Virus record (IMG/VR): IMGVR_UViG_3300010938_000074
Coordinates: 1-41,844 of that record
Reading direction: 5' to 3' (one strand)
Length of the DNA stretch: 41,844 nucleotides
Origin: a virus
Shown here: in pieces, positions 9,918 through 41,844 of the stretch
Layout: the number at the start of each line of letters is the position of its first letter
Numbering within the stretch: position 1 is the stretch's first letter
Made by a program: the position numbers and the translations under genes
The notes under the pieces: model-generated
What the model saw: the letters and a program-made list of their open reading frames with translations, nothing else
Database searches by the model: none
Told to the model about the DNA's origin: nothing

Positions 9918-9978
9918 GCCGCCGGCGCAGGCTCCCTGGCGCCCGTGTGCGCGCCCGGTCGGGGCGGCGTCCGCATGG

Positions 9979-10010
9979 GCCGCCCCCGCCTTGTTTTCGG
10001 GGGGGGCGGC
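9979..10010. other. GC-rich stem-loop between terminase genes
   Basis: A perfect 9-bp stem (GCCGCCCCC 9979-9987 with GGGGGCGGC 10002-10010) lies in the 112-bp gap before the large terminase. No T-run follows, so it is not a classic terminator. It could attenuate transcription or affect translation. A packaging-site role is conceivable from position but unsupported. Confidence 0.4.
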
Positions 10011-10029
10011 GCGTGCTAGGATTGCACCA

Positions 10030-11553
10030 ATGGCTGGTGAGCCCGCGGACGGCGACTGGGCTGCCTGGGTGCATGCGCATACTCAGGCGCGCCTCGAGGG
10101 GCCGCGTGCGATCGCCTCATGGTGCGACCCGTCCTTCCTTTCGCCGCCGCACATCACCTACGCGAGTGATCAAATCCGCGACGCCGTGCTAAGCGGGAAC
10201 GGGCGCATCATGGTGCTCATGCCGCCGCGGCACGGCAAGTCCACGCTTTGCTCTATCTGGACGCCGCTCTGGCTCCTGTCTCTGCGACCATGGGCGCGCG
10301 TTATTTTGGCGAGCTACGCGGCGGAGATTGCGTCGCGTTTCGGTCGTCTCGCGCGTTCGCTTGTTCTCGAGCATCCCGACAAGCTCGGGATCAAGTTAGC
10401 CGAAGACAGCGCTGCCGCGCATCGCTGGAACACGACCGAAGGCGGAGGCATGTTGAGCGTGGGCATCGGCGGTCCGCTCACTGGGTTCGGCGCGAATCTT
10501 GTCATCATCGATGACCCGGTGCAGAACGACGAGGAGGCGCGGAGTAAGGTCTACCGCGAGCGCGCGTGGGAGTGGTACCAGGCCACGCTGTCGACGCGGC
10601 TCGAGCCGCGCGCCTCGATTTTGTTCGTGATGACGCGCTGGCACGAAGATGATCTCGCGGGCCGCATTCTTGCCCGTGAGAAAGATCGATGGCTGGTGAT
10701 TCGATTCCCCGCGATCGCGGAGACTGCGGATGCGATTGGGCGTGCTCCTGGCGACGTACTGTGGCCGGAGCGTTACGGCCATGACGAGATTCAGCAGACG
10801 AAGGCTTATCTATCGGCCTACTGGTGGAGCGCGCTTTATCAGCAGCGTCCGACGCCGGACGGCGGCGGCATGTTCCGGCGCGAGCATTTTCGGTATTTCC
10901 ATCGCATGAGCGATGGCGGTTACGTGATCAACGACGAGTGTGGGCGTCGCGTGTACTACGATACGGGGCTCGCGTGGTTCCAGGTCTGCGATACGGCGAT
11001 GAAGGTGAAGACGACGAACGACTGGACGGTCGTATCGACGATCGCCACGACGCCGGAGCGCGAGATGCTACTGGTCGACGTGCAGCGTGTGCGGCTCGAG
11101 GTGCCGGATCAGTTGCCGTTTTTGCGAGCGCAGGCGCGCAAGTGGCGGCTCGTGCGGCGCCAGTACGTCGAGGATCGCGCGAGCGGGACTGGGCTCTTGC
11201 AGACGGCGGCGCGCGAGGGTGTTCCGCTTGTGCCGGTCGAGGCCGAGACTGACAAGGTCAACCGTGCGAGTTCGCTCTCGAACTGGTATCGAGCTGGGCG
11301 CGTGTATCACCTTGCCGGGGCCCCGTGGCTCGCGGACTACGAGGAAGAGCTGCTGCGGTTTCCGTTGGGCGAGCACGACGATCAGGTGGATACCGCGGCC
11401 TACGCGACGCGGCTCCTCGAGATGTCTGGAGAATGGCTTTATCCGGTGGTGGCGTTCGAGGAGCGGGATGCGAGGCATCCCGAAGATTACGAGGAACGGG
11501 GCTGGCGTGGGATCATGGATCGCTATGTAGGGGTATTGCGCCCCAGGCCCTAG
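10030..11553 (+). CDS. terL: Terminase large subunit
   Basis: This 507-residue protein has Walker A PPRHGKS (Lys70) and Walker B VIIDDP (Asp161-Asp162). It has the RNase H-like nuclease acidic residues in VCDTAMK (Asp321), EDRASG (Asp382) and GEHDDQVDT (Asp450-Asp454). It packages DNA into the prohead using ATP and cuts the concatemer. The ATG at 10030 is chosen because the Walker A motif then lies at the usual distance; the frame is open further upstream but overlaps the putative small subunit. Confidence 0.95.
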   Translation: MAGEPADGDWAAWVHAHTQARLEGPRAIASWCDPSFLSPPHITYASDQIRDAVLSGNGRIMVLMPPRHGKSTLCSIWTPLWLLSLRPWARVILASYAAEIASRFGRLARSLVLEHPDKLGIKLAEDSAAAHRWNTTEGGGMLSVGIGGPLTGFGANLVIIDDPVQNDEEARSKVYRERAWEWYQATLSTRLEPRASILFVMTRWHEDDLAGRILAREKDRWLVIRFPAIAETADAIGRAPGDVLWPERYGHDEIQQTKAYLSAYWWSALYQQRPTPDGGGMFRREHFRYFHRMSDGGYVINDECGRRVYYDTGLAWFQVCDTAMKVKTTNDWTVVSTIATTPEREMLLVDVQRVRLEVPDQLPFLRAQARKWRLVRRQYVEDRASGTGLLQTAAREGVPLVPVEAETDKVNRASSLSNWYRAGRVYHLAGAPWLADYEEELLRFPLGEHDDQVDTAAYATRLLEMSGEWLYPVVAFEERDARHPEDYEERGWRGIMDRYVGVLRPRP

Positions 11554-11566
11554 GAGCTAGATTACC

Positions 11567-12865
11567 GTGATGGTGCGTGACCGTATCAAGGAATTTCGGC
11601 GTGTTCCTGCCCGGGATCTGCGTCCGAACCCACTGAATTGGAGGAAGCACCCGCAAACCCAGCGTGATGCGCTCCGTGGGATCCTTAGTGAGGTGGGTTA
11701 CGCCGATGCCCTGATCGCCCGCCAGACCGAGGACGGCGCACTGGAACTCATCGACGGCCACCTCCGTGCGGAGACGACGCCCGACATGGAGGTCCCGGTT
11801 CTCGTACTCGACGTGACGAAGGAGGAGGCTGACAAGCTCCTGGCGAGTCTCGACCCTATAGCGACCATGGCCGAGAAGGACGAAGACGCCATTCGCGCCA
11901 TCTTGGCCGGTGTCAAGACCGACAATGAGGCGCTAGCATCGCTCTTCGAAGGTCTTGTGGAGCCGGATCTGGACGAGGGGCTTACAGACCCAGATGCGGT
12001 TCCGGAACCGCCAGTTGCGGCGGTAACGAAGCCGGGGGATCTCTATCATCTTGGCGAACATCGTCTCTTGTGTGGGGATTCATCAAAGGCAGAGGATGTC
12101 GACCGACTTCTCGACGGCGCGCCTATCCACCTTGTGAATACCGACCCGCCCTACAACGTGAAGGTCGAGCCGAGGTCGAACAACGCACGAGCCCATGCGG
12201 TGCGCGAAAAGAAGGTACTCGGCAAGAACTCCAAATCTGATCTTGCGCGGCATAGGAAGCGGATCCCCACGGGGCCGATGCGCCCGCGTGACCGCGCGCT
12301 TGTGGGCGACTGGATTCCCGACGAGGAGTTCAACGCGCTTCTACGGAAATGGTTCGGGAACATCGCGCGCGTTCTCCTCCCTGGCCGCAGCTACTACATT
12401 TGGGCGGGGGACAGAAACGTTTTTAATTACCCCAGTGCGATCCTCGACTCGGGGCTCTACTTCAGCCAGATCATTATCTGGGTGAAGAACCACCCAGTGC
12501 TTACGCGACGCGATTTCATGGGGGGCCATGAGTACTGCTACTACGGGTGGAAGCCCGGGCAGGCCCACTACTTCAACCAGGCGATCCACAATGCCACGGA
12601 TGTATGGTCAGTGAAGAACGTGAACCCGCCGAGCATGATCCACCTCACCGAGAAGCCAGTGGATCTGGCACTGCGCGCGATGGAGTACTCCTCCCGCAGG
12701 AGCGAGAACGTCCTCGATCTTTTCGGCGGCTCGGGCAGCACGCTCATCGCCGCGCAGCAGGCCGGCCGACGGGCGTTCATGATGGAGATCGACCCGCTGT
12801 ACTGCGACGTGATCGTCGCGCGGTGGGAGACGTTCACTGGGCAAAAGGCAAAACGGATGACATGA
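11567..12865 (+). CDS. ParB-like domain fused to DNA methyltransferase
   Basis: This is a 432-residue protein. Residues 1-100 form a ParB/Srx-like domain (VPARDLRPNPLNWRKHP, then LELIDGHLRAET). Residues 160-430 form an amino-methyltransferase with DPPY (193-196) before the SAM-binding FGGSGS (386-391), an order typical of beta-type N6-adenine or N4-cytosine enzymes. Between them lies a region with IWVKNHPVLTRRDF that resembles other phage methylases. It may protect phage DNA from host restriction or mark packaging sites. The GTG at 11567 or the ATG at 11570 can start; GGAG lies upstream. A large inverted repeat follows. Confidence 0.92.
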   Translation: MMVRDRIKEFRRVPARDLRPNPLNWRKHPQTQRDALRGILSEVGYADALIARQTEDGALELIDGHLRAETTPDMEVPVLVLDVTKEEADKLLASLDPIATMAEKDEDAIRAILAGVKTDNEALASLFEGLVEPDLDEGLTDPDAVPEPPVAAVTKPGDLYHLGEHRLLCGDSSKAEDVDRLLDGAPIHLVNTDPPYNVKVEPRSNNARAHAVREKKVLGKNSKSDLARHRKRIPTGPMRPRDRALVGDWIPDEEFNALLRKWFGNIARVLLPGRSYYIWAGDRNVFNYPSAILDSGLYFSQIIIWVKNHPVLTRRDFMGGHEYCYYGWKPGQAHYFNQAIHNATDVWSVKNVNPPSMIHLTEKPVDLALRAMEYSSRRSENVLDLFGGSGSTLIAAQQAGRRAFMMEIDPLYCDVIVARWETFTGQKAKRMT

Positions 12866-16909: not shown

Positions 16910-19354
16910 ATGACAGTCCCGATCCTCTATTCCCCGAATGTCAACAGCGACCTCTACAACTACGCGCTTCAGACCGCGTTTGACGTTCACTGGCGGCTCT
17001 ACGATCCGGACTTCGCGTTGGCCCAGGACCCCGAGGCGGTCGAGAAGATCAAGCGCGACGCGACGATCATGCACGCGGTGCAGATGCGTCTTCGTATGGT
17101 CGCTGCGAAGAATTGGAGGATGGTACCGTGTTCCGATCGCGCCGAGGATCGCGCCGCGGCCGAGATCATCGAGGAGCTGTTCAAGGAGATTCGTTCTTTT
17201 CGAGCCGCACGGTACGCGCTCGCCTATGCCTTTCTGGTAGGGCGCACCTACGCGCAGATCTATGGAATTCGGCGTGCTCTTCCGCTCTACGACGGGTTCA
17301 TGCGCACGTGGTGGGTGCCGACCGGACTCAAGGACATTGACCGGCGTCGGGTAAGGCGTGCGCCGCGCCGGGATCCGAAGACGGGTGAACTGCGCACGGT
17401 GGATGAGTACTACAGCGTGATGGCGCGCAACTGGGTCGAGGCTGATCTTTCCTCTGTTGTATCGGTCGTATTCGACAACGAGGAAGGGCGTCTCGGCTAT
17501 GGACGCGGGCTTGTGGAGTGCATCTATTTTTACTACTACTGCATGTCCACGTTGCTCAAGGAAGGGTTGCAGGGCGCGGAGCGGTGGTCCCAGGGATTTC
17601 TCATCGGTAAGATCGACTCCTCGGCACCTGGCACGACGACGCAGACGGCACAGCAGATGCGCGACGCTTTCATCGCCGCGTTCGAGAAGACGAAGGCGCG
17701 GCACATCGCGGTGATCGATAAGAACGACGATGCGCAGCTGCTCTCGCCGAGTGACGTGGGGAATCGGATCGTGATGGACTTGCGGAATGCGCTGAAGGAA
17801 GAGATCACGCAGGTGATTCTCGGGTCTGTTCTTCCGACAGGCGGCGGCGGCGAGAGAGGATCGCTTGCGCGCGCGGAGGTCGAGCAGGACAGCATGGCGA
17901 GCATTGTGGACTTCGATCGCGGTGTGCTGGACGAGGCGATCACGCGCGATCTGGTGGGGCTTGTGTGGCGGATGAACCAGCCCGTCTTTCGACAGATGGG
18001 GCTCGGTTCGGCGCGATCCCCGCGCTTCGAGACGATCTCGCAGATGGTGCATGATCCGCAGGTACAGGCGAGCGTCATCGAAATGTTGACCCGAGTGGGC
18101 GTTCCGCTGCGACGCGATGAGGTGTACGAGCGCACCGGGTTCACGCCTCCGAGCCCGCAGGACGATGTGTTCGAGCCGTCGACCGGCGCCACCGCGAGCC
18201 CGGGCGAAACGCCCCCCGAGGACATGGTATCCGGCTGGCTCGAGAACGGTTCTGAGGCGTTTTCTTTCGCCGCTGCGCCGCCGCGGCGGGATCCACGGAC
18301 GATCAAGAGACTCCCGAGCGGTGAGTTTGCGCCGAAAGGGCAGGGCGAGGTACGCGAACGGAAGGAAGCCGGTCCTTCCTCAGATGGTCCCGTATCCTCG
18401 GACGATTCTTCTTCTTCGGAGGGTACAGGGCAGACCACTGCAGTTGTAGGTGCAAGTCGACCGCCGAGACAGGGTGCGCCGGGGTCTCAGCTACCGGAAG
18501 CGCAACGCGCGGCCTTGGCGCGGTTCGGCGTGACGAAGTGGCCTCCGCTCGACGCGAAGAATCTCGTCGTGCACGATCTCGAGGCGCCCGATGTAGATCG
18601 GCGTGCGGTGATGACTTGGACGGATCGCAGTGGGAAGCTGCAGCATGCCTACACGGCGGCATTCCATCGAGAGAATGCGGTGCGGAAGTGGTTGCGCGTG
18701 CAGAGATGGGCCCCGCAGGTCGAGGAGTTCTTGGACGGTTTTCGCACTGATCTCGCGACTCATCCCGCGGGTTCCCCGCGTCACATGGCGGCTACGATTG
18801 CCGCAGTGATCGCGCACACGGGCTTGCGTCCTGGAAAAACTGGAGAAAGTGAAGCGCGCGGGCATTACGGCGTGACGACGCTTCGCGCGAAACACGTTTC
18901 TATTGCCGACGGTGTGGCGTCCTTCGACTTCGTGGGCAAGTCTGGGAAGCGGAACGTTGCGTCGGTAGACGACCCCGCCGTGGTCGCCGCGCTGGCATCG
19001 TACAAGGCCCTCGCTCCGTCTGACGACGCGCCTCTGTTCCCGGGTGCGACGCCGGAATCGGCGCGCTCGACGCTTCCTGTGGGCATGAAGCTCAAGGACT
19101 TCCGAACGATTCTCGCAACGAAGGCTGCGGAGAACATCGCGCGCGCGTGGATCGGTCCGCCGCCGCCGCTGCACCCCGATCCGAACAAAGCGAAGCGGCA
19201 AGTGTTGAAGGCCGTTCGTGAGATGAGCGCGAAAGTCGCGAAACGGCTCAACAACACTCCGGCGGTAGCGCGTGCCAGCTATATCCACCCGCGCATTTTC
19301 GAGGAGTGGGCCCGTCGTATCGGTGTGCCCGAGGAGGTAGTACGTGTCGCGTGA
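16910..19354 (+). CDS. Portal protein fused to type IB topoisomerase domain
   Basis: This 814-residue protein has two parts. Residues 1-440 match a DUF935/Mu gp29-like portal: MRLRMVAAKNWRMVP, YALAYAFLVGRTYAQIYG, GYGRGLVECIYFYYY and GERGSLARAEVEQDS. A low-complexity linker (about 440-530, with SSDDSSSSEG) follows. Residues 535-814 are a topoisomerase IB catalytic domain: TGLRPG (Arg640), YGVTTLRAKHV, GKSGK (Lys677/Lys680), LKDFRT (Arg732), LNNTPAVARASYIHP (Asn782, Tyr791). The Arg-Lys-Arg-Asn/His-Tyr set looks complete, with Asn nine residues before Tyr as in some bacterial enzymes. The fusion would place a DNA-relaxing enzyme at the portal vertex. The reading frame runs without a break through the linker. 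Confidence 0.92.
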   Translation: MTVPILYSPNVNSDLYNYALQTAFDVHWRLYDPDFALAQDPEAVEKIKRDATIMHAVQMRLRMVAAKNWRMVPCSDRAEDRAAAEIIEELFKEIRSFRAARYALAYAFLVGRTYAQIYGIRRALPLYDGFMRTWWVPTGLKDIDRRRVRRAPRRDPKTGELRTVDEYYSVMARNWVEADLSSVVSVVFDNEEGRLGYGRGLVECIYFYYYCMSTLLKEGLQGAERWSQGFLIGKIDSSAPGTTTQTAQQMRDAFIAAFEKTKARHIAVIDKNDDAQLLSPSDVGNRIVMDLRNALKEEITQVILGSVLPTGGGGERGSLARAEVEQDSMASIVDFDRGVLDEAITRDLVGLVWRMNQPVFRQMGLGSARSPRFETISQMVHDPQVQASVIEMLTRVGVPLRRDEVYERTGFTPPSPQDDVFEPSTGATASPGETPPEDMVSGWLENGSEAFSFAAAPPRRDPRTIKRLPSGEFAPKGQGEVRERKEAGPSSDGPVSSDDSSSSEGTGQTTAVVGASRPPRQGAPGSQLPEAQRAALARFGVTKWPPLDAKNLVVHDLEAPDVDRRAVMTWTDRSGKLQHAYTAAFHRENAVRKWLRVQRWAPQVEEFLDGFRTDLATHPAGSPRHMAATIAAVIAHTGLRPGKTGESEARGHYGVTTLRAKHVSIADGVASFDFVGKSGKRNVASVDDPAVVAALASYKALAPSDDAPLFPGATPESARSTLPVGMKLKDFRTILATKAAENIARAWIGPPPPLHPDPNKAKRQVLKAVREMSAKVAKRLNNTPAVARASYIHPRIFEEWARRIGVPEEVVRVA

Positions 19355-30561: not shown

Positions 30562-32720
30562 ACGCGGTTCGGGTTGAGCTGGACGGGAAAAAGGCGCTCG
30601 GGTCCGCGACGCTCTCGTGGTCTTTCACCGAAGGTGTGCGTCCGCATTTCGCCGAGGTCGATCTTCTTCCGTCGGATGCGGACGCTCTCGTCTCGGGTGC
30701 TTTGCGGCCGATCACGCTTCGCATTTCGACGGGTGGCAGCGCTGTTGAAATCCGAAACCTCTACGTTATCTCGCGCGTTCCGTCGGACACGCCGCAGATC
30801 GCGCGCGTGCAGATCGCGGATCGTCGCTGGTTCTGGGGGAAGGTTCATGTTTTGCGACGATTCAACATGCGCCGCAACGTCGGCTACAAGCGGCTGGCGC
30901 CGGGAAGCCTCGATGTACTCTCTCCCGTGAAGGCGGACGTGTGGTACGCGCCGTTCTCTTTGCCGGGCGAGAGCTCGAGTTCGGAACCGTGGAGCGGGTC
31001 GAAAATTCTCGATTCGGTGTTGCGCTTCGTCCTGAAGCGAGAATCCGAGTCCGGTGGCGCGTCGGCCGGATTCATCATCGAGAATACGATCTCTAGCGGG
31101 CTCGCGAACTACCCGATCGAAAACCTAGAACTGGACGATCCCGGGGACGCAGCGATCGAGCGCGTGCTGTCGTACCTTCCGCAGGCGGGTGTGTGCGTGG
31201 ACGCGGACGGCACCGTGCGCGTGTTCGACCGCACTTCGGAACGTGACCGGAAGATCGTGGAGGATCTGGGCCCAGAGAAGGTCGGACGTGGGCACGTCGA
31301 AATCATCGATCTAGCTCGCGTGCGCCCTTCGGAGGTTCGCGTTCACTTCACGCGTGAGTGTGAGGTGCGATTCGATTTCGACGAACCGTCCGCGACTGGC
31401 GGGACCGTGGCGCGTGGATCCGAGGATCTATTCGTCGAGAACGTTCTACCTGTGCCGGACTTTACGTTGAAACTCACATCGGGCGAATCCGTGTCCCAGG
31501 GGACGTGGATTACCATCGGGCAGGCGCTTTCCGCATGGGGAGCACCGCCGGGACTTGGGCGGCTTGACTACGACATCCTACGTAAGGCATTTGTCCCGTA
31601 CCTTGACCTCTGGGCACCCCTGCGTCTCGCTGGCCAACGCGATCCCGATGCGGATTGGGGCTCGCGTCTCGAGGCGTTACAGCACCACTGGCGCAAGACC
31701 TACCGCATCAACCGGAGGTTCATGGATCGGATTCTCCAGTTGCACGCCTACCGCGTCGCGGTCATCGATCAGGAGACCGGGACACGTGCGCCCGCGATGG
31801 CCTACGGCGATTACTGCACGCTTGGCTCGCAACGATCCATGCTTGCAGAGGCATTCGGTGGGAAGGCGGACTTGACATACTGCCAGAATTACGACGCCTA
31901 TCCATTCGGCGGCGCGCTGGGTGGCACAGAAAAGCCAGCGCCCGCGACCGTGACGATTCTCGATCATGACCAGGGGATCGTGCACCTCGATTATCTGATG
32001 GACCGCGCGCGGCTGTTCGAAATGGTCATGCCTGGCCAGCTTGACGAAACAACGGCTCCGAATGGGAGTCTCAAAGGTCGCAACAACCCGATCACGTTCA
32101 ATGCCATTGGGCGATCGCATCAGGTCCCACGGTTCAAGTCGGGCTACAAGCTGATCTTACTTCTGTCCGCGATCCCAGGGGCGCCGAACGATGAACGGCA
32201 GCTCCAAACGCTCGTACGCAGACCACAGGACGTCGTCTCGTTTTTCCCGTCCGGCGCGCGTACCGCGCTCCTCGCTTCGCGCGGCCCGGTCGTGGATGTG
32301 CGAATCGGTGCCGCCGTCGAGACGGCACGCGTCGCGTGGGCTGATTCCAAGGGGAAGGAGATCAAGAAAGCCTTCGGCATCGAGTCTGGAAAGCCTGATC
32401 TAAAATCCCTGACGATCAATCTCGGCAATCAGGAGGGTATCGGCATCCGCGGCGCCTCTCTCGATGCCATCGCAGACGCGGCCGCGGCTCGCGTCTATGC
32501 CGGTGCGCTCGATCGCCCGATGGGCCAGAAAGCTGTGACCCTGAATACGGCCGCGCAGCTCGCCGGATGGCTCTCGGAGGTGCGATGGATCGTCGCAACG
32601 ACCGGCGAGGTGTCCACAGAGGTACGAACCGCGCCGAGCGTGGTTCCGCTCAACCTGTTCGCACTTCTACCGGCAAACGTGCGGCGCGTCGTGCTCAAGA
32701 CCGCGCAGTCCGGAAGGTAG
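30558..32720 (+). CDS. Large tail-tip or baseplate hub protein
   Basis: This 720-residue protein starts with GTG overlapping the small membrane gene. It is mixed alpha/beta with no repeats. Segments such as VLSYLPQAGVCVDADGTVRV resemble hub or baseplate proteins that assemble around the tail tip. The order (tail core, two large tail proteins, fibre) supports a hub. There is no recognisable lytic domain. Confidence 0.55.
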   Translation: MNAVRVELDGKKALGSATLSWSFTEGVRPHFAEVDLLPSDADALVSGALRPITLRISTGGSAVEIRNLYVISRVPSDTPQIARVQIADRRWFWGKVHVLRRFNMRRNVGYKRLAPGSLDVLSPVKADVWYAPFSLPGESSSSEPWSGSKILDSVLRFVLKRESESGGASAGFIIENTISSGLANYPIENLELDDPGDAAIERVLSYLPQAGVCVDADGTVRVFDRTSERDRKIVEDLGPEKVGRGHVEIIDLARVRPSEVRVHFTRECEVRFDFDEPSATGGTVARGSEDLFVENVLPVPDFTLKLTSGESVSQGTWITIGQALSAWGAPPGLGRLDYDILRKAFVPYLDLWAPLRLAGQRDPDADWGSRLEALQHHWRKTYRINRRFMDRILQLHAYRVAVIDQETGTRAPAMAYGDYCTLGSQRSMLAEAFGGKADLTYCQNYDAYPFGGALGGTEKPAPATVTILDHDQGIVHLDYLMDRARLFEMVMPGQLDETTAPNGSLKGRNNPITFNAIGRSHQVPRFKSGYKLILLLSAIPGAPNDERQLQTLVRRPQDVVSFFPSGARTALLASRGPVVDVRIGAAVETARVAWADSKGKEIKKAFGIESGKPDLKSLTINLGNQEGIGIRGASLDAIADAAAARVYAGALDRPMGQKAVTLNTAAQLAGWLSEVRWIVATTGEVSTEVRTAPSVVPLNLFALLPANVRRVVLKTAQSGR

Positions 32721-35560: not shown

Positions 35561-36301
35561 CTAGAGCGCCTTCACGAAACGCACCAGCGCCCGGATGGCG
35601 CGCTCGTAGCGCGGAGCGTCACGCCCCGCCACATACCGGAGCGTCAGCTTCTTGACTTTCTTCCTCCAGTCCTCCAACGGGTGCTCTTCGCACCCGTAGC
35701 GCAGCCGACAGCTCCCGTCGGCCATCTCAAAGGCCGCCCACTGATATTTCAGGAGACGGCCGGTCGCCCGGACAGCGCGGACCTCTCCCGCGCCGGTGAG
35801 CGCCCCAGCGAGGTCCGCATCGGCGAAATTCGTGCCATTGAGGCGCGCCCCCTGGAGATTCGCGCCCGTGAAACTCGCCCACTCACAATCCGCATCAGTG
35901 AGATTCGCGAACGAGAGATTCGCATCAGAGAGGCTTGCGAAAAAAAGATCCGTCTCGGTGAGGTTCGCGCCCACAAGGGTCGCGCCCACAAGGGTCGCAC
36001 CTTCGAGATTCGCTCCTTGCATGTCGGTTGCGGTCAGGTTTGCCTTCGCGAAGTTGGCGCACGCGAGGTCCGCACAGACGAGATTTGCGCCCAAGAGGTC
36101 GGCGCCGCTGAAGTTCGTCTCCTCGAGGTTCGCCATGAAGAGATTGGCGCCCGCGATGTGCACTCCCGCGAAGTTCGCCTGAGCGAGGTTCGCCCCCACG
36201 AGGCAGATGCGCTGCTCGACGGCGGCGATGAGCGCCTCGCGCAACGAGCCGCCGGGATGCTCGAAGAACACCTGTCCGTAGCAGTTAACAATCTTCTGCA
36301 T
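35561..36301 (-). CDS. Pentapeptide-repeat protein, paralogue 1
   Basis: This 246-residue protein has three parts. The N-terminus (MQKIVNCYGQVFFEHPGGSL...) is a conserved leader, residues 34-165 form pentapeptide repeats (A(D/N)LXX pattern, for example GANLAQANFAGVHIAGANLF), and a conserved C-terminal domain follows (RLRYGCEEHPLEDWRKKVKK). Pentapeptide solenoids are right-handed beta-helices that can mimic DNA or bind proteins such as gyrase, but the target is unknown. It overlaps the upstream 75-residue gene by 17 bp and has two paralogues to the right. Confidence 0.85.
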   Translation of the reverse strand: MQKIVNCYGQVFFEHPGGSLREALIAAVEQRICLVGANLAQANFAGVHIAGANLFMANLEETNFSGADLLGANLVCADLACANFAKANLTATDMQGANLEGATLVGATLVGANLTETDLFFASLSDANLSFANLTDADCEWASFTGANLQGARLNGTNFADADLAGALTGAGEVRAVRATGRLLKYQWAAFEMADGSCRLRYGCEEHPLEDWRKKVKKLTLRYVAGRDAPRYERAIRALVRFVKAL

Positions 36302-36512
36302 CGTTGTCCTCCAACGACATCAGCGGGCCTATTCCCGCCGATGAGGAGTCCACCAACTCCTCGGCGTACCGGCGAAGGTCTTCCCGGGTGGCGACCTGGC
36401 CGCGCACGACGGCGCGGTGGCAGTCCTCGGCCAGCCTCCGGACATGCGCCCAATACTGGGCGCGCAATATGGCGTGCGCGTCCGCGCGCGCCTTCTCGGC
36501 TTCGGCGGTCAT
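36285..36512 (-). CDS. 75-residue helical protein, copy 1 of duplicated pair
   Basis: MTAEAEKARADAHAILRAQY begins a 75-residue helical protein with AHVRRLAEDCHRAVVRGQV. Except for its first residues it is identical to the product of 37225-37452. A GGAG ribosome site from the upstream intercistronic element precedes the ATG. Its last 19 residues (SSAGIGPLMSLEDNDAEDC) are coded across a hairpin like the element's third hairpin (36318-36343). Function unknown; it precedes a pentapeptide-repeat gene in both copies. Confidence 0.7.
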   Translation of the reverse strand: MTAEAEKARADAHAILRAQYWAHVRRLAEDCHRAVVRGQVATREDLRRYAEELVDSSSAGIGPLMSLEDNDAEDC

Positions 36513-36518
36513 TTCATC

Positions 36519-36603
36519 TCCGACGCCATCGGCGGGCCTATTCCCACCGATCCCGCCTGCTAGGCGGGTTCGGTCCCATGGAGAGACCGCCGCACGCATG
36601 GAG
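36519..36603 (-). promoter_or_regulatory. Intercistronic three-hairpin element, copy 1
   Basis: Minus-strand order: GCATGGAG box (CTCCATGC), hairpin A (CGGTCTC/GGGACCG), hairpin B (CCCGCC/GGCGGG), hairpin C (ATCGGTGGG/CCCGCCGAT, loop AATAGG), then a GGCGTCGGAG ribosome site. All stems pair; wobbles fit the minus transcript. It precedes the 75-residue gene ending at 36285. Confidence 0.85.
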
Positions 36604-36626
36604 TCTCCCGGCCCATCGCCCGGTCC

Positions 36627-37241
36627 TCAGGAGCCTGGTCCCACTGGCTTCGAGAGCGCCTTCACGAAACTCACCAGCGCCCGGATGGCGCGCACGTAGC
36701 GCGGAACGTCAGATTCCGACACATACCGGAGCGTCAGCTTCTTGACTTTCTTCCTCCAGTCCTCCAATGGGTGCTCTTCGCACCCGTAGCGCAGCCGACA
36801 GCTCCCGTCGGCCATCTCAAAGGCCGTCCACTGATAGTTCAGGAGACAGCCGGTCGCCCGGACGGCGCGGACCTCTCCCGCGTCGATGATCGCACCCGCC
36901 AGGTTGGCATTGGCGAAATTCGTGCCTGTGAGAAGCGTCAACAGGCAATTCGCACCAGAGAGGTTTGCGAACGAAAGGTTCGCGCCCACGAGGTTCGCGC
37001 CCTCAAGGTTCGCGCCCTCAAGGTTCGCGCCCCTGAGGTTCGCGCCCGCGAGGCTCGCGCCCGCCAGGTCGGCTGCGGGCAGATCTGCATGCGGGCAGTT
37101 CGCGCCCGAGAGGTCCGCCCGGACGAGATCCGCGCCCTTGAGGCAGATGCGCTGCTCGACGGCGGCGATGAGCGCCTCGCGCAACGAGCCGCCGGGATGC
37201 TCGAAGAACACCTGTCCGTAGCAGTTAACAATCTTCTGCAT
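36627..37241 (-). CDS. Pentapeptide-repeat protein, paralogue 2
   Basis: This 204-residue protein shares the first 33 residues and the C-terminal domain almost unchanged with paralogue 1. Its repeat region (about 34-120) is shorter and differs in sequence (GADLVRADLSGANCPHADLP...). The C-terminus adds SKPVGPGS where paralogue 1 stops. The pattern, conserved ends and a variable solenoid, suggests selection on the solenoid. It overlaps the upstream 75-residue gene by 17 bp. Confidence 0.85.
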   Translation of the reverse strand: MQKIVNCYGQVFFEHPGGSLREALIAAVEQRICLKGADLVRADLSGANCPHADLPAADLAGASLAGANLRGANLEGANLEGANLVGANLSFANLSGANCLLTLLTGTNFANANLAGAIIDAGEVRAVRATGCLLNYQWTAFEMADGSCRLRYGCEEHPLEDWRKKVKKLTLRYVSESDVPRYVRAIRALVSFVKALSKPVGPGS

Positions 37242-37452
37242 CGTTGTCCTCCAACGACATCAGCGGGCCTATTCCCGCCGATGAGGAGTCCACCAACTCC
37301 TCGGCGTACCGGCGAAGGTCTTCCCGGGTGGCGACCTGGCCGCGCACGACGGCGCGGTGGCAGTCCTCGGCCAGCCTCCGGACATGCGCCCAATACTGGG
37401 CGCGCAATATGGCGTGCGCGTCCGCGCGCGCCTTCTCGGTCAGCTCGGTCAT
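37225..37452 (-). CDS. 75-residue helical protein, copy 2 of duplicated pair
   Basis: MTELTEKARADAHAILRAQY starts this copy. It is the same as the product of 36285-36512 apart from the first few residues. Nucleotide identity runs on into the pentapeptide gene start downstream (37141-37438 equals 36201-36498), so a two-gene unit was duplicated. A hairpin C-like sequence lies at 37258-37283 within its 3' end. Function unknown. Confidence 0.7.
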   Translation of the reverse strand: MTELTEKARADAHAILRAQYWAHVRRLAEDCHRAVVRGQVATREDLRRYAEELVDSSSAGIGPLMSLEDNDAEDC

Positions 37453-37459
37453 TTCATCC

Positions 37460-37546
37460 TCCGACGCCACCGGTCGCACCATCGCACCCGGTCCCGCCCG
37501 CTGGGCGGGCAGCGCCCCCAACGAGGGGGCGCCCGCACGCATGGAG
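37460..37546 (-). promoter_or_regulatory. Intercistronic three-hairpin element, copy 2
   Basis: Hairpin A is GCGCCCCC/GGGGGCGC, unlike other copies but fully paired. Hairpin B is CCCGCC/GGCGGG. Hairpin C is ACCGGGTGC/GCGACCGGT with loop GATGGT and one mismatch. A GGCGTCGGAGGA site follows. The GCATGGAG box touches the stop of the clamp-like gene. Confidence 0.85.
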
Positions 37547-38116
37547 TTACTTGGGGCTCACCACTGCCAACAGCCCGGTCGCCGTGCGGGTCTCGTCCTT
37601 CGACGAGAATCGCACCGGCAATTCGTCGTCCCACACCTCCAGCAGGACGACGGCGTCCGGGTGTTCGACGAAGTCCTGGATCGCTTGAACCAGCCCCACC
37701 AGGAGCTTGGCGTCCAAGTAGACCCGAACGGTGGGCTCCTTCTGGGGAGTCACCGCAGCCACATTCGTGTGCCAGTGGTGCGGAATGTCGGGCAGGGTGT
37801 ACCCCCAATCCGCATCCTCCGGGCCGATCTTTGCGGTATCGGCCGTCAAGCTGACCCGGAGCCGCCCGTGTTTCGGGCCAGGAAGCCCACGCAAGGCTTT
37901 CTCCCAGTCCTTCGGGTTGACCGAGATGGCTCGCCCTTCGTCACCAGGCGTAGCGACACCCGACTCCTCCAACACGAGCATCCGTCGGCCGTCCGTCGCG
38001 CTGCACCGATAGCCGGTATCGGTGGCCTCGATCCTCACGCCCAAAAGGCGGGGGTTATCCTTGCGGCCCGGTTGGATTCGGGCGGCCACGGCAGCCCGCC
38101 GGTCCATGAACGGCAT
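37547..38116 (-). CDS. Possible sliding-clamp-like protein
   Basis: This is a 189-residue protein. The first half has LLGVRIEATDTGYRCSATDG and RRMLVLEESG, and the second half has VRVYLDAKLLVGLVQAIQDF, then ELPVRFSSKDETRTATGLLAVV. These resemble DnaN domain patterns (gv.ie..-ATDGhrl; v.ldakyL..ll; Pv.f). It is far shorter than a three-domain clamp, so it would have to form multimers or act otherwise. The ATG at 38116 has AAGGAAGGA upstream. A confident alternative cannot be given. Confidence 0.5.
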   Translation of the reverse strand: MPFMDRRAAVAARIQPGRKDNPRLLGVRIEATDTGYRCSATDGRRMLVLEESGVATPGDEGRAISVNPKDWEKALRGLPGPKHGRLRVSLTADTAKIGPEDADWGYTLPDIPHHWHTNVAAVTPQKEPTVRVYLDAKLLVGLVQAIQDFVEHPDAVVLLEVWDDELPVRFSSKDETRTATGLLAVVSPK

Positions 38117-38156
38117 ACGATCCTTCCTTTCTCCCGGCTTCTTGCCGGGTCTTGTC

Positions 38157-38241
38157 TCCGACGCCATCGGCCACACCATCGTGACCGATCCCGCCCGTTT
38201 GGCGGGCGCGGTCCCACGGAGGAGCCGCCGCACGCATGGAG
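38157..38241 (-). promoter_or_regulatory. Intercistronic three-hairpin element, copy 3
   Basis: Hairpin A is CGGCTCC/GGGACCG with one mismatch, as if two copies recombined. Hairpin B is CCCGCC/GGCGGG with loop AAACG-like. Hairpin C is ATCGGTCAC/GTGGCCGAT with loop GATGGT, fully paired. An extra CCCGGC/GCCGGG hairpin lies between this copy and the gene start at 38116. Confidence 0.8.
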
Positions 38242-38243
38242 AG

Positions 38244-38909
38244 CTAGAGCCTTTCCACGAAGTCCACCAGCGTTAGGATGGCGTGGGTGTACCGCGGGAC
38301 ATCACCCTCCGACAAATGCCGGAGCGCCACCTTCTTGACCGTCTTCCGCCAGTTCTTCAACGAGCGCTCCTCACACCCGTAGCGCAGCCGCCGGCTGCCG
38401 TTGACCATCGCGAAGGCCGTCCATCGATACCCCAGGAGACAGCCGGTCGCCAAGACGACATGGATCTCTCCCGCGGTGGTTCGTGCACACGTGAGATTCG
38501 CCTTGTCAAAGTTCGTGCCTGCGAGGCACGCCCTCCTGAGACGCGCTCCCGAGAGGTCGGCGCCCGTGACGTCGGCCCCAGCGAGATATGCCCCTGTGAG
38601 GTTCGCGCCCCTGAGACGCGCACTTTCGAGACGCGCTTTCGGGAGAGTCGCGCCTTTGAGGTTCGCGGTCGTAAGGTCGGCTCCCGTGAGGTCCGCCCCC
38701 GTGAGGTCGGCTCCCGCGAGAGTCGCATTTGCGAGGTGCGCGTCCATGAGCTGTGCATTCGCAAGCTCGGCCCCCACGAGGTACGCTCTCGTGAGGTCAG
38801 CTCCCGCGAGGTTGATCTTCTGCTTGACGGCGGCGACGACCGCCGCGCGCAGCGAGCGGCCGGGGTGCTCAAAGAGCAACCTCCCTGAGTAGCGGACGAT
38901 CCGGTGCAT
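38244..38909 (-). CDS. Pentapeptide-repeat protein, paralogue 3
   Basis: This is a 221-residue protein. A leader related to paralogues 1 and 2 (MHRIVRYSGRLLFEHPGRSL) is followed by a pentapeptide solenoid (about 34-145, with perfect ADLTG repeats) and the related C-terminal domain (RLRYGCEERSLKNWRKTVKK). It is more divergent at DNA level than 1 versus 2. GGAGGA of the intercistronic element precedes the ATG at 38909. The longer in-frame start in the element is probably not used. Confidence 0.85.
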   Translation of the reverse strand: MHRIVRYSGRLLFEHPGRSLRAAVVAAVKQKINLAGADLTRAYLVGAELANAQLMDAHLANATLAGADLTGADLTGADLTTANLKGATLPKARLESARLRGANLTGAYLAGADVTGADLSGARLRRACLAGTNFDKANLTCARTTAGEIHVVLATGCLLGYRWTAFAMVNGSRRLRYGCEERSLKNWRKTVKKVALRHLSEGDVPRYTHAILTLVDFVERL

Positions 38910-38918
38910 CTCGTGTCC

Positions 38919-39006
38919 TCCGACGCCACTCGCCGGACCATTCCGACGAGTCCCGCCCGCTAGGCGGGCGCGGCTCCCCAGCAGAGGAGCCGCCGCACGC
39001 ATGGAG
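38919..39006 (-). promoter_or_regulatory. Intercistronic three-hairpin element, copy 4
   Basis: Hairpin A is CGGCTCC/GGAGCCG (loop TCTGCTGG-like), B is CCCGCC/GGCGGG, and C is ACTCGTCGG/CCGGCGAGT with loop AATGGT. A GGCGTCGGAGGA site follows. It precedes pentapeptide paralogue 3. Stems pair with one G-U in the minus transcript. Confidence 0.85.
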
Positions 39007-39007
39007 T

Positions 39008-39367
39008 CTAGGCGCGCATGGCCGACCGCCGGGAGTAGGCGAGGTCAACCGCGCGGCGGAAAGCTTCGCGGGTTTGAACGTCGCGGAACATGGCCTCTTC
39101 CGCGAACCACCGGAGCGCTTCCAGCATGCTCACGCTCCGGTCGACGGCGACGGCCACCCCCGCCACCGCCAGCGGAAACCGCGTGCACCGAATCGCGGTC
39201 ACCTGGAGGCACGCGTCGCGCGTGTAGGGCGATTCGCAAATCAATTCTTGTGCGTACTCCTCCACAGCATCGGTGGTGGTCATAATGCTGTTGAGTTGTA
39301 CAGCGCGGTAGCACTCGTCCGCGATTCGGTCTACCGCGTCCTCATACGAGGGGCGAGGGTCGTACAT
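39008..39367 (-). CDS. Small hypothetical helical protein
   Basis: This is a 119-residue protein. MYDPRPSYEDAVDRIADECY, then AVEEYAQELICES, LAVAGVAVAVDRSVSMLEAL and a basic C-terminus are mainly helical. GGAGG from the element precedes the ATG at 39367; the ATG at 39385 lies inside the element and is less likely. An ID-EC-RA-Q helix resembles the 75-residue proteins (LAEDCHRAV; YAEELVDSS), so a distant relation is possible. Confidence 0.55.
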   Translation of the reverse strand: MYDPRPSYEDAVDRIADECYRAVQLNSIMTTTDAVEEYAQELICESPYTRDACLQVTAIRCTRFPLAVAGVAVAVDRSVSMLEALRWFAEEAMFRDVQTREAFRRAVDLAYSRRSAMRA

Positions 39368-39374
39368 ACCTGCC

Positions 39375-39459
39375 TCCGACGCCATCGGGCAGCCTATTCT
39401 GCCCGATCCCGCCCGCTAGGCGGGCGCGGTCCCTGTGTGGGACCGCCGCACGCATGGAG
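39375..39459 (-). promoter_or_regulatory. Intercistronic three-hairpin element, copy 5
   Basis: Hairpin A is CGGTCCC/GGGACCG, B is CCCGCC/GGCGGG, and C is ATCGGGCAG/CTGCCCGAT, a perfect stem with loop AATAGG. A GGCGTCGGAGG site follows. Its GCATGGAG box is the point where the duplicated 386-bp block begins. Confidence 0.88.
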
Positions 39460-39461
39460 CG

Positions 39462-39803
39462 TTAGATCGTCACGGGCGGAAGCTTGCCGATGCAGTCCTC
39501 GGCCAGGTCCTCCATGCCCATCTCGCGCGCCACCCGCTGGATGGCCTGAGGGATGTCCGCCCCGGCGTCGACACACTCGCCCCCGGCGTAGCTGCGCTCA
39601 CCCTGCCACCGGGTCTCGTACTCGCCGGTGACGATGGCGCGCCCGTCCGCGTGGACGCGGACGCGCAGCCGCCGCTTGCGGTCGGCCTGGAAGGCCAGCG
39701 GGCCGCGCGGCCACTTGGCCTCCGCCACCACCGGCCAGTCCGCCTCCAGGATGCGGACGGGTCGCCGTCCGGTGAGGGGGACCGTGATGTACTCGTTCGA
39801 CAT
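39462..39803 (-). CDS. Small hypothetical protein, copy 1 of exact duplicate
   Basis: This 113-residue protein (MSNEYITVPLTGRRPVRI...) is mostly beta/alpha with a late helix DIPQAIQRVAREMGMEDLAE. It is identical in sequence to the product of 40214-40555. GGAGGAAAGA precedes the ATG. Function unknown. The exact DNA identity indicates a recent duplication. Confidence 0.65.
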   Translation of the reverse strand: MSNEYITVPLTGRRPVRILEADWPVVAEAKWPRGPLAFQADRKRRLRVRVHADGRAIVTGEYETRWQGERSYAGGECVDAGADIPQAIQRVAREMGMEDLAEDCIGKLPPVTI

Positions 39804-39810
39804 TCTTTCC

Positions 39811-39898
39811 TCCGACGCCACTCGCCGGACCATTCCGGTGGATCCCGCCCGCTAGGCGGGCGCGGCTCCCCAGCAGAGGAGCCGCCGCACGCATGGAG
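39811..39898 (-). promoter_or_regulatory. Intercistronic three-hairpin element, copy 6
   Basis: Hairpins A (CGGCTCC/GGAGCCG) and B match copy 4. Hairpin C pairs only at the inner CCGG/CCGG with loop AATGGT; the outer stem mismatches. It looks like a hybrid in which only the 3' half (toward the gene) was copied, since identity with copy 7 ends inside this hairpin. Confidence 0.8.
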
Positions 39899-39901
39899 GA
39901 G

Positions 39902-40207
39902 CTATTCGGCGGCATCTCGCTTGAGCCGCTCGACGAACCGCGCGATCAGCCGCTCCGGGACCGCCGCTTTGGTCGCCAAGTCGCGAATGGCCGCAACGAC
40001 GGTATGGAGCGTCGGCCAGGCGACGTAGCGTTCATACGTCTCGATGGGGAACGGACGCCACCTCGGCGTCCGTCGATCCCGCACTACGCGCACCCGGACG
40101 TGCGCGTAGACGCCGGCCTCGTCGTGCCGGATAGCGACCTCCAGGCAGATATCCCGCCGGTTGGTCGCGTCCTGCCCTACCGTGCTGATGTGTGTGTACG
40201 CATGCAT
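39902..40207 (-). CDS. Small hypothetical protein
   Basis: This is a 101-residue protein. MHAYTHISTVGQDATNRRDI leads into a beta stretch (VYAHVRVRVVRDRRTPRWRP) and a helical C-terminus (ATKAAVPERLIARFVERLKR). Its upstream element is lost: only the GCATGGAG box lies between it and the stop of the upstream gene, and the box supplies the ATG. Function unknown. It may have been joined to the duplicated cassette at the box. Confidence 0.5.
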   Translation of the reverse strand: MHAYTHISTVGQDATNRRDICLEVAIRHDEAGVYAHVRVRVVRDRRTPRWRPFPIETYERYVAWPTLHTVVAAIRDLATKAAVPERLIARFVERLKRDAAE

Positions 40208-40213
40208 GGAGCG

Positions 40214-40555
40214 TTAGATCGTCACGGGCGGAAGCTTGCCGATGCAGTCCTCGGCCAGGTCCTCCATGCCCATCTCGCGCGCCACCCGCTGGATGGCCTG
40301 AGGGATGTCCGCCCCGGCGTCGACACACTCGCCCCCGGCGTAGCTGCGCTCACCCTGCCACCGGGTCTCGTACTCGCCGGTGACGATGGCGCGCCCGTCC
40401 GCGTGGACGCGGACGCGCAGCCGCCGCTTGCGGTCGGCCTGGAAGGCCAGCGGGCCGCGCGGCCACTTGGCCTCCGCCACCACCGGCCAGTCCGCCTCCA
40501 GGATGCGGACGGGTCGCCGTCCGGTGAGGGGGACCGTGATGTACTCGTTCGACAT
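40214..40555 (-). CDS. Small hypothetical protein, copy 2 of exact duplicate
   Basis: This copy is identical to the gene at 39462-39803 (113 residues). The identical block extends from 39452 to 39837 and from 40204 to 40589 on the DNA. Its left boundary is the GCATGGAG box. Function unknown; one copy may be redundant. Confidence 0.65.
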   Translation of the reverse strand: MSNEYITVPLTGRRPVRILEADWPVVAEAKWPRGPLAFQADRKRRLRVRVHADGRAIVTGEYETRWQGERSYAGGECVDAGADIPQAIQRVAREMGMEDLAEDCIGKLPPVTI

Positions 40556-40562
40556 TCTTTCC

Positions 40563-40647
40563 TCCGACGCCACTCGCCGGACCATTCCGACGGGCCCCGC
40601 CCGCTAGGCGGGTGCGGTCCCATGGAGGGACCACCGCACGCATGGAG
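40563..40647 (-). promoter_or_regulatory. Intercistronic three-hairpin element, copy 7
   Basis: Hairpin A is GGTCCC/GGGACC, B is CCCGCC/GGCGGG, and C pairs over six bases (CGTCGG/CCGGCG, loop AATGGT). A GTCGGAGGAAAG site follows. The 3' part is shared exactly with copy 6. It separates the duplicated gene from the next gene. Confidence 0.85.
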
Positions 40648-40914
40648 CTAGGGCTTCGCTCGAGCAAGCTCGATCTGCGCCGCGAGTTCCCGCCCGCGCG
40701 GTGTCAGGGCCAGGCAATCGCCGCTCGACGTGGCGATCCCCCCCTCGAGCAAAAGCGATCGCAGAAGCTGGTAGTCGTCGAAGGTCACGCCGTCCTGCAT
40801 GAGGCCGGCGTAGATGTGCCCCTCCGGCGCTCCGGCGCCGTCCGCCTCGTCAAGCGCCATGATCACGGCGACCAGCAAGCCGTTCAAGCGGTCCCTCGTC
40901 ATCCTCGTCATCAT
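40648..40914 (-). CDS. Small winged-helix-like protein
   Basis: This is an 88-residue protein. MMTRMTRDRLNGLLVAVIMA, then QDGVTFDDYQLLRSLLLEGG, then CLALTPRGRELAAQI fits a small winged helix. Starts at 40914, 40911 and 40902 are all in frame; spacing from GGAGGA suits 40911. A DNA-binding role is suggested by pattern only. Confidence 0.55.
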   Translation of the reverse strand: MMTRMTRDRLNGLLVAVIMALDEADGAGAPEGHIYAGLMQDGVTFDDYQLLRSLLLEGGIATSSGDCLALTPRGRELAAQIELARAKP

Positions 40915-40919
40915 CGTCC

Positions 40920-41006
40920 TCCGACGCCATCCGCCGGACCATTCCGACGGATCCCGCCCGCTAGGCGGGCGCGGCCCCTTATGCCGGAGCCGACGCACGC
41001 ATGGAG
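40920..41006 (-). promoter_or_regulatory. Intercistronic three-hairpin element, copy 8
   Basis: Hairpin A is CGGCTCC/GGGGCCG (one G-U pair), B is CCCGCC/GGCGGG, and C is ATCCGTCGG/CCGGCGGAT with loop AATGGT. A GGCGTCGGAGGA site follows. All three stems pair in the minus transcript. Confidence 0.88.
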
Positions 41007-41007
41007 T

Positions 41008-41334
41008 CTAGTCGTCGATCGCGAGCAACTGCTCGACGCAGTGCTCCGCGGCTTCACGGGGCGCGCCCGCTTCCTCCGCGAGGACGCGCACCTCGGCCGC
41101 GATGGCCTGCTTGTCGCTCGCCCCGGAAAAAGTGCGGGTCTTCAGGGGGTAATAGACCCCGGCCTTTTCCTGCTCGACACGGAGCCTCGCGACGTCGTTG
41201 TCGATCGACGCCGCGACGATCCACAGGGTGTCCGCCTTCTCGTCCCAGCAGAGCCCCGTGACCAACAAGGCCCCGCGGGAGGCGGAGTACACACCCCGCC
41301 AGTAGATCTCGGCGAACTCATCGATCGTGAGCAT
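41008..41334 (-). CDS. Small hypothetical protein
   Basis: This is a 108-residue protein. MLTIDEFAEIYWRGVYSASR is followed by a beta segment (GLCWDEKADTLWIVAA) and helices (KQAIAAEVRVLAEEAG; AAEHCVEQLL). The last helix resembles those of the 75- and 119-residue proteins in this operon. GGAGGACACAAG precedes the ATG. No family is recognised. Confidence 0.55.
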   Translation of the reverse strand: MLTIDEFAEIYWRGVYSASRGALLVTGLCWDEKADTLWIVAASIDNDVARLRVEQEKAGVYYPLKTRTFSGASDKQAIAAEVRVLAEEAGAPREAAEHCVEQLLAIDD

Positions 41335-41343
41335 CTTGTGTCC

Positions 41344-41430
41344 TCCGACGCCACCGACCGGCCTATTCCGGTCGGCCCCGCCTGCTGGGCGGGTGCGTCT
41401 CCCAGGGCGGGAGACGCCGCACGCATGGAA
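41344..41430 (-). promoter_or_regulatory. Intercistronic three-hairpin element, copy 9
   Basis: Hairpin A is GCGTCTCCC/GGGAGACGC, B is CCGCCC/GGCGGG-like with a different loop, and C is CCGACCGG/CCGGTCGG, perfect, with loop AATAGG. A GGCGTCGGAGGA site follows. The terminal box is GCATGGAA. It is the promoter-proximal copy. Confidence 0.85.
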
Positions 41431-41432
41431 GA

Positions 41433-41540
41433 TCAGTCTTTCATCCGCGCCTCCGATAGGTCGGCGCCGGTGATGCGCGTGCCCACGAGCCTGGCGATCT
41501 CGTGTCGATCGCCGTTCTTCATCATCTTTCGCATGACCAT
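41433..41540 (-). CDS. 35-residue first gene of accessory operon
   Basis: MVMRKMMKNGDRHEIARLVG, then TRITGADLSEARMKD, lies directly after the promoter-like module; a second start is at 41534. Its end (ITGADLSEARM) looks like a piece of pentapeptide repeat. It may be the remnant of a longer pentapeptide gene or a leader peptide at the operon head. No ribosome site is seen, so translation may be leaderless. Confidence 0.45.
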   Translation of the reverse strand: MVMRKMMKNGDRHEIARLVGTRITGADLSEARMKD

Positions 41541-41844
41541 ATATTAGCGCGGTATCGCGACAGAAAAAGAAAAATCCGTCCTACCCGCAAATATATTTCT
41601 GTGCCAAACACGCACGCCGGCGCGAGAATTCTAGAATCTAATGGCGTGCCAAACGAGCCCCCGAAGGTTCGGCCGGTAACTTTATTTCCGGCCGGCGCGG
41701 CGAGATCGCCCGGGCCCGTAGGGCGCGCCCTGGTAGCCCAGGTGGCCCTGGTGGCGCCGTAGGGGCGCCCAGGTGGCCCCGGGGGCGCCGTAGGGGCGCC
41801 CAGGAGGCCCCGGTAGCCCCGGGGGCGCCGTAGGGGCGCCCAGG
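41531..41844 (-). repeat. Right copy of promoter/minisatellite module, cut by window end
   Basis: This block repeats the left module (219-532) with small differences: the operator-like palindrome reads CGCGGTATCGCG here, and there are a few substitutions and a one-base deletion. After a 31-bp minisatellite unit at 41761-41791 come one full 40-bp unit and 13 bases of the next. The non-identity shows that this is a second copy, not a terminal overlap of one locus. It would drive the leftward operon that starts at 41540. Confidence 0.8.

What the first reader, a model, noticed from the sequence alone, without database searches (positions are those of the whole stretch)
36519..41430. Nine-copy intercistronic RNA element with covarying hairpins in the leftward accessory operon
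Each copy (36519, 37460, 38157, 38919, 39375, 39811, 40563, 40920, 41344) has the order GCATGGAG box, hairpin A, hairpin B, hairpin C, ribosome site. Stems A and C differ between copies yet keep pairing: A is GGTCCC/GGGACC, GGCTCC/GGAGCC, GTCTCCC/GGGAGAC or GCGCCCCC/GGGGGCGC; C is ATCGGGCAG/CTGCCCGAT, ACTCGTCGG/CCGGCGAGT, CCGACCGG/CCGGTCGG or ATCGGTCAC/GTGGCCGAT. The C loop stays RATRGK. Non-Watson-Crick pairs are G-U only in the minus transcript, where they would be A-C on the other strand. This argues for an RNA acting in the mRNA of the operon. It could be a processing site, a translational switch beside the ribosome site, or a protein-binding hairpin. I do not recognise a published family, but I could not search for one.
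Basis: seen in the sequence. Interest (0 to 1): 0.93.

Follow-up and report, generated by a model that had tools for sequence, protein, structure and literature searches.

The report
Repeated structured RNA between phage genes
In one uncultivated phage, the same ~88-nucleotide folded RNA sits between nearly every pair of neighbouring genes of an operon, right after one gene's stop codon and ending at the next gene's ribosome-binding site; it matches no RNA family we could search and probably controls how each next gene is translated.

Summary
Nine ~88-nt copies lie between genes of the leftward operon of an IMG/VR phage, all on the minus strand. Stems A and C keep pairing through changes on both sides: 97.5% of cells paired, 13 of 31 pairs with double changes, 0/500 shuffles as good. 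In a tree-aware null, C reaches 0/3000 and A about 3e-4. Stem B never varies, so it is untested. The invariant ends can pair (CUCCAUGC/GCGU-c-GGAG) into a four-way junction that hides the SD, but this pairing is not statistically supported. Eight of nine copies start 0-3 nt after the upstream stop codon. A shortened version (hairpin C, 6-nt spacer, GGAG) precedes both starts that lie inside an upstream gene. A 386-nt one-gene cassette is duplicated with breakpoints inside the element. "G-U only" is wrong in detail (15 G-U versus 4 A-C in varying pairs). Nothing matches in Rfam, and no relative was found in IMG/VR or phage records or in sampled bacterial genomes. I think it is a translation-initiation/coupling module. 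Processing, self-cleavage or protein binding remain open. Another phage (L160) carries five hammerhead-II-like motifs in the same position.

The parts
41343..41430 (-). copy 1 of the full element (box, hairpins A, B, C, GGAG); upstream stop TGA ends 2 nt before it, gene start at 41334
40919..41006 (-). copy 2 of the full element; precedes ATG 40914/40911
40562..40647 (-). copy 3 of the full element; precedes first copy of the duplicated gene (ATG 40555); one A-C mismatch in hairpin C
40199..40211 (-). box-only remnant: CTCCATGCATGCG fused to the start of the gene 39902-40207 (its ATG is the box ATG); no hairpins and no obvious SD
39810..39898 (-). copy 4 of the full element; 3' half identical to copy 3, hairpin C has two A-C mismatches (recombinant)
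39374..39459 (-). copy 5 of the full element; precedes ATG 39367
38918..39006 (-). copy 6 of the full element; precedes pentapeptide-repeat gene (ATG 38909)
38156..38241 (-). copy 7 of the full element; here GGAG is about 40 nt from the ATG (38116), with an extra hairpin and a second SD (GGAAGGA) between
37459..37546 (-). copy 8 of the full element; precedes ATG 37452
36518..36603 (-). copy 9 of the full element; the only one whose upstream stop is far (about 24 nt); precedes ATG 36512
37249..37282 (-). minimal copy: hairpin C + 6-nt spacer (GTCGTT) + GGAG inside the end of ORF 37225-37452, before pentapeptide gene ATG 37241
36309..36342 (-). minimal copy identical to the previous one, before pentapeptide gene ATG 36301
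40204..40589 (-). one-gene cassette (hairpin C loop to box) duplicated with 100% identity at 39452-39837
39452..39837 (-). second copy of the 386-nt cassette
35561..41543 (-). leftward accessory operon: small unknown proteins, three pentapeptide-repeat proteins, a beta-clamp-like protein (37547-38116)

Best explanation
A cis-acting RNA module in a polycistronic phage mRNA that controls translation initiation of each following gene and ties it to translation of the gene before. SHOWN: a folded element with stems A and C under selection for pairing; on one strand only; starting 0-3 nt after the upstream stop codon in 8 of 9 copies; ending in GGAG just before the next start in 8 of 9 copies; hairpin C, a 6-nt spacer and GGAG form the smallest unit and are kept at the same spacing where the start codon lies inside the upstream gene. 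INFERRED: the ends pair (CUCCAUGC with GCGU-c-GGAG) and close a four-way junction that masks the SD; a ribosome that reaches the upstream stop codon covers the 5' strand, opens this stem and frees the SD, so the next gene is translated in step. The invariant loop RAUrGk of hairpin C and the invariant GUGCG are then contacts for the ribosome or for a regulator.
For: Covariation of A and C. Stop-to-element distance 0-3 nt in 8/9 copies. GGAG a few nt before ATG in 8/9 copies. In element +12 nt, P1 pairing probability is on average 0.92 and SD accessibility rises from 0.06 to 0.73 when the first nucleotides are held open as by a terminating ribosome. The minimal copies occur exactly where genes overlap, so that an upstream ribosome passes through anyway, and keep hairpin C-6 nt-GGAG without gaps. 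Unwinding of initiation-blocking structure by the upstream ribosome is one of the two main mechanisms proposed for coupling (PMC7538156).
Against: P1 is invariant, so it has no covariation. Its duplex energy is matched by 21% of shuffled boxes and 15% of random genomic 13-mers, and with 25-40 nt of downstream sequence its mean probability falls to 0.38. With 40 nt of context on both sides it is formed in only about a third of copies. Copy 38157 keeps GGAG although the gene has another SD about 40 nt further on. In copy 36519 the upstream stop is about 24 nt away. The invariance of GUGCG and stem B is not explained by coupling alone. All copies come from one genome.
Confidence: 0.42

Rival explanations
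1. An RNA processing site between cistrons: a self-cleaving ribozyme of an unrecognised class, or a site for a host nuclease (RNase P or RNase III like), that cuts the polycistronic mRNA into single-gene messages.
For: The pattern (invariant junction nucleotides, freely varying peripheral helices) is that of small ribozymes. Another phage, L160, has five hammerhead-II-like motifs in exactly this niche, between stop codon and SD of successive genes, with one covarying hairpin, and L047 has two. Clustered self-cleaving hammerheads in polycistronic RNA, and phage intergenic hammerheads, are published (PMC3088659). In copy 38157 GGAG is kept although it is not the SD.
Against: No hammerhead core (CUGANGA, GAAA) in any copy. 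Hammerhead-II and twister-sister models do not match the elements, and no Rfam ribozyme does. Helices of 6-10 bp are short for RNase III. The minimal copies lie inside coding sequence and lack the box, hairpin A and the hairpin B sequence, which is odd for a cleavage site.
Confidence: 0.22
2. A translational operator: a phage or host protein binds hairpin C (loop RAUrGk) beside the SD and switches the whole operon on or off together.
For: The loop is conserved while the stem covaries. Hairpin C with its spacing to GGAG is the one part common to full and minimal copies. The loop motif flanked by GG/CC occurs 8 times in the window, all at these starts, against 0.76 expected.
Against: No candidate RNA-binding protein was recognised in the operon. 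Does not need box, hairpin A, hairpin B or the tight distance to the upstream stop codon.
Confidence: 0.2
3. A transcription signal in RNA (pause, antitermination or polarity-relief site, put- or nut-like) repeated through the operon.
For: Repeated RNA hairpins in a phage operon on the transcribed strand.
Against: On the transcribed strand no T-run follows the stems and no terminator- or promoter-like site lies at the elements. Position is locked to start codons rather than to the promoter; no relative of known put RNAs in Rfam.
Confidence: 0.08
4. A DNA element: a recombination site or cruciform that lets one-gene cassettes be copied and exchanged, with RNA pairing a by-product.
For: A 386-nt one-gene cassette is duplicated at 100% identity with both breakpoints inside elements, which broke hairpin C pairing.
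Against: Wobbles are 15 G-U against 4 A-C on the transcribed strand. All copies share one strand and sit at fixed distances to stop and start codons. Homologous recombination between repeats needs no special site, and the ends lack attC-like boxes.
Confidence: 0.06

Closest known systems
Start-associated sequences (SAS/ESAS) of cluster K mycobacteriophages (PMC3203893)
   Same: Many copies in one phage genome, mostly in one orientation, immediately before translation starts of a subset of genes; about half have an extra inverted repeat upstream; role in translation initiation proposed but unproven.
   Different: SAS is a 13-bp sequence GGGATAGGAGCCC; the authors state that departures in the ESAS repeats do not generally support RNA pairing. 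Here two stems covary, there are three hairpins plus a box, and the element fills the whole space from stop codon to SD.
Clustered intercistronic hammerhead ribozymes of bacteria and phages (PMC3088659; hammerhead-II-like motifs also seen here in L160 and L047)
   Same: Structured RNA repeated between codirectional genes, between stop codon and SD, with covarying peripheral stems.
   Different: No hammerhead core; four helices instead of three; GGAG of the next gene is part of the element.
Translational coupling by SD-masking secondary structure (general mechanism, described in PMC7538156)
   Same: Downstream SD can be paired with sequence next to the upstream stop codon.
   Different: The cases I know are single, gene-specific structures; here one module is reused at nearly every gene junction.
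RNase III processing sites between early genes of phage T7 (from own knowledge, not tested)
   Same: Repeated intercistronic hairpins in a phage mRNA.
   Different: T7 sites are long hairpins with internal loops; here stems are 6-10 bp and arranged around a junction.

Membership tests
Hammerhead ribozyme (RF02276 and others) | CUGANGA and GAAA core around a three-way junction | tested here: not met
   No copy holds the core; Hammerhead_II model hits none of the nine elements, while it rings, below its cut-off, at all five sites in L160 and both in L047
Twister-sister ribozyme (RF02681) | Match to the covariance model | tested here: not met
   No match at E<=10 in the window
Any Rfam 15 family | Match at gathering score | tested here: not met
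   No match at gathering score, nor at E<=1 over the operon; only chance-level hits below gathering at E<=10 over two copies
tRNA or tmRNA | ARAGORN detection | tested here: not met
   0 genes in the window
SAS/ESAS of cluster K mycobacteriophages | Repeated element immediately upstream of several start codons on one orientation | tested here: met
SAS/ESAS of cluster K mycobacteriophages | 13-bp sequence GGGATAGGAGCCC | tested here: not met
   Not among the conserved segments; only the GGRATRG part of the loop region is similar
SAS/ESAS of cluster K mycobacteriophages | Inverted repeats without RNA-pairing support (as published) | tested here: not met
   Here pairing support is strong (PMC3203893)
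Translational coupling by SD masking | Upstream stop codon within ribosome reach of the masking strand | tested here: met
   0-3 nt in 8 of 9 copies
Translational coupling by SD masking | SD stably paired in the mRNA | tested here: inconclusive
   P1 0.92 in the short context, 0.38 in longer contexts; no covariation
Translational coupling by SD masking | Downstream translation depends on upstream translation | not testable with these tools
   Needs reporters or ribosome profiling
Integron attC site | Terminal boxes RYYYAAC and GTTRRRY | tested here: not met
   Ends are CTCCATGC (CTTCCATGC variant in one copy) and GCGTCGGAG in all copies

The most novel reading that the evidence does not exclude
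A previously undescribed small self-cleaving ribozyme, or another autonomous RNA with four helices and an invariant junction, used as a standard spacer between nearly all genes of a phage operon, in the same niche where another phage carries hammerhead-like motifs.
Probability: 0.12. Interest if true: 0.9.

Novelty: new variant of a known kind. Interest (0 to 1): 0.58.

Why it matters
If right, a phage has turned one folded RNA into a standard junction between genes: each gene comes with its own stop-to-start module, cassettes can be copied at the module, and expression along a long mRNA is set by RNA structure rather than by promoters. It gives ten distinct natural variants of one element with which to dissect translational coupling or processing, and it revives the open question of what the repeated start-associated elements of phages do.

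Tried and rejected
Relatives: exact and loose DNA patterns over IMG/VR and GTDB contigs gave only chance sites. The covariance model over 49 phage contigs found through the terminase gave three weak hits; the two inspected (L089, L090) are unrelated hairpins and the third (15.6 bits) was not examined further. Over 81 loci fetched with operon proteins and 296 genomes of a streptomycete's phylum it found none. Protein searches with portal, clamp-like protein, helicase and small operon proteins gave no useful relatives. Coding reading of the element from the box ATG: the frame to the next start is 0, 1 or 2, one copy has an early stop, and hairpin A loops change length by non-multiples of three, so no conserved peptide. 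Promoter or terminator reading: nothing at the elements on the transcribed strand. tRNA reading: none. Hammerhead and twister-sister: not met. P1 as a proven helix: rejected as proven, kept as a hypothesis. A whole-locus scan for other phages with repeated structured stop-to-start regions found only the window strongly; the seed scan found L160 and L110.
Full report
WHAT THE WINDOW IS. The window is a whole IMG/VR virus record of 41,844 bases, 64% GC: a tailed phage with large terminase (9718-11553), portal (16910-19354), Mu-F-like head protein, major head protein and helicases on the plus strand, and a leftward operon of small genes at 35561-41543. Its terminase is at best 48% identical to anything found in IMG/VR and 32-38% to the phage records listed, so it has no close relative in the searched collections (near-identical records may be left out by the tools).

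THE ELEMENT IS THERE. Nine copies lie on the minus strand only, between the genes of the leftward operon. They align almost without gaps. A covariance model built from them scores them at 95-104 bits on the minus strand and 11-25 bits on the plus strand; the two minimal copies score 24.7, and everything outside the operon is at 17 bits or less.

THE PAIRING IS REAL FOR STEMS A AND C. With a structure of four helices (P1, A, B, C; 31 pairs), 97.5% of cells pair, 13 pairs show changes on both sides, and none of 500 shuffles reaches the observed pairing, double changes or covariation score; slid partners pair in 40-49%. I added a tree-aware simulation: helix A paired p about 3e-4 (joint 0/3000), helix C 0/3000. 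An all-pairs test in the manner of R-scape leaves 3 of 31 pairs at E<0.05, 13 of 31 at p<0.05; nine sequences give little power. P1 and B hardly vary, so nothing can be said from covariation about them.

STRAND. Outside one invariant U-G pair there are 15 G-U, 4 A-C and 3 other mismatches on the minus transcript. Three of the four A-C lie in copies 39811 and 40563. These precede the two copies of a 386-nt cassette (hairpin C loop to box) that is duplicated at 100% identity, so recombination inside hairpin C explains the broken pairs.

(a) The two invariant ends can pair, CUCCAUGC with GCGU-c-GGAG, closing a four-way junction; GGAG is the SD of the next gene. (b) The element starts 0-3 nt after the upstream stop codon in eight of nine copies, about 24 nt in copy 36519. 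(c) Two minimal copies, hairpin C plus a 6-nt spacer plus GGAG, stand before the pentapeptide genes at 36301 and 37241, inside the end of the overlapping upstream gene; they align with the full copies without a gap, and hairpin C still covaries when one is included. The two minimal copies are identical, part of a duplicated segment, and count as one. (d) At 40209 a bare box is fused to a gene whose ATG is the box ATG. (e) In copy 38157 the GGAG is about 40 nt from the start codon, with another hairpin and another SD in between, so GGAG belongs to the element and not only to the start.

HOW IT MOST LIKELY WORKS. Position argues for translation: locked to stop codon on one side and to start codon on the other, and kept in a shortened form where the two genes overlap. 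In the element plus 12 nt, P1 forms with mean probability 0.92, and holding its 5' strand open as a terminating ribosome would raises SD accessibility from 0.06 to 0.73. With more downstream sequence the mean P1 probability is only 0.38, and the box-SD complementarity itself is matched by 21% of shuffles (with 40 nt on both sides). So coupling through P1 is a hypothesis; coupling or initiation control in general is the best-supported role. Unwinding by the upstream ribosome is one of the two main mechanisms proposed for coupling (PMC7538156).

RIVALS. Processing deserves weight because of an unexpected parallel: in L160, a phage contig found through a pentapeptide protein, five copies of what looks like a type II hammerhead lie between stop codon and SD of successive genes. 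The Rfam Hammerhead_II model rings at all five (18-23 bits, below its cut-off of 37) and at two places in L047 (36.3 and 22.6 bits) but at none of the nine elements. Clustered hammerheads and phage intergenic hammerheads are published (PMC3088659). The window element has no hammerhead core and matches no Rfam family. A protein-binding operator at hairpin C is about equally open. DNA-level and transcription-level readings are weaker.

COMPARISON. The nearest described phenomenon is the SAS/ESAS set of cluster K mycobacteriophages (PMC3203893): repeated, start-associated, oriented, function unproven; but its inverted repeats were judged not to pair in RNA, whereas here they do. I file the element as a new variant of a known kind (repeated start-associated or intercistronic phage RNA element), not as a member of any family tested.

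LIMITS.

Noticed in passing
L160:5880-8216 (IMGVR_UViG_3300022548_000077): Five hammerhead-II-like motifs (GAAA ... GUC ... CUGAUGA) repeated between stop codon and SD of successive phage genes, with a covarying stem III hairpin; below Rfam's cut-off (18-23 bits).
   Followed up: partly
L047 minus strand (G029:C1:31098-31156 and 31437-31502; IMGVR_UViG_3300044621_001939): Two type II hammerhead-like motifs (CUGACGA core), at least one of them directly before a gene start; 36.3 and 22.6 bits.
   Followed up: partly
L110:4440-6530 (IMGVR_UViG_3300032237_000267): Six intercistronic hairpins of about 10 bp with changing stems, each followed by a conserved ATGATTACAAAGTCAACCA-like segment before the next start; no Rfam match of weight. 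Possibly another repeated phage element.
   Followed up: partly
window 37547-38116: Protein resembling part of the DNA polymerase sliding clamp (PDB 5ah2 E 5e-5; PHROG processivity factor E 0.0045), 189 aa only.
   Followed up: partly
window 35561-36301, 36627-37241, 38244-38909: Three related pentapeptide-repeat proteins in one phage operon, two of them in a duplicated segment (spacing 940).
   Followed up: no
window 41722-41844: Tandem GC-rich repeats (GGCGCCGTAGGGGCGCCCAGG) at the very end of the record; may be a repeat-rich gene or an assembly end.
   Followed up: no
window 11567-12865: ParB-like and DNA methyltransferase family matches in one protein next to the terminase.
   Followed up: no
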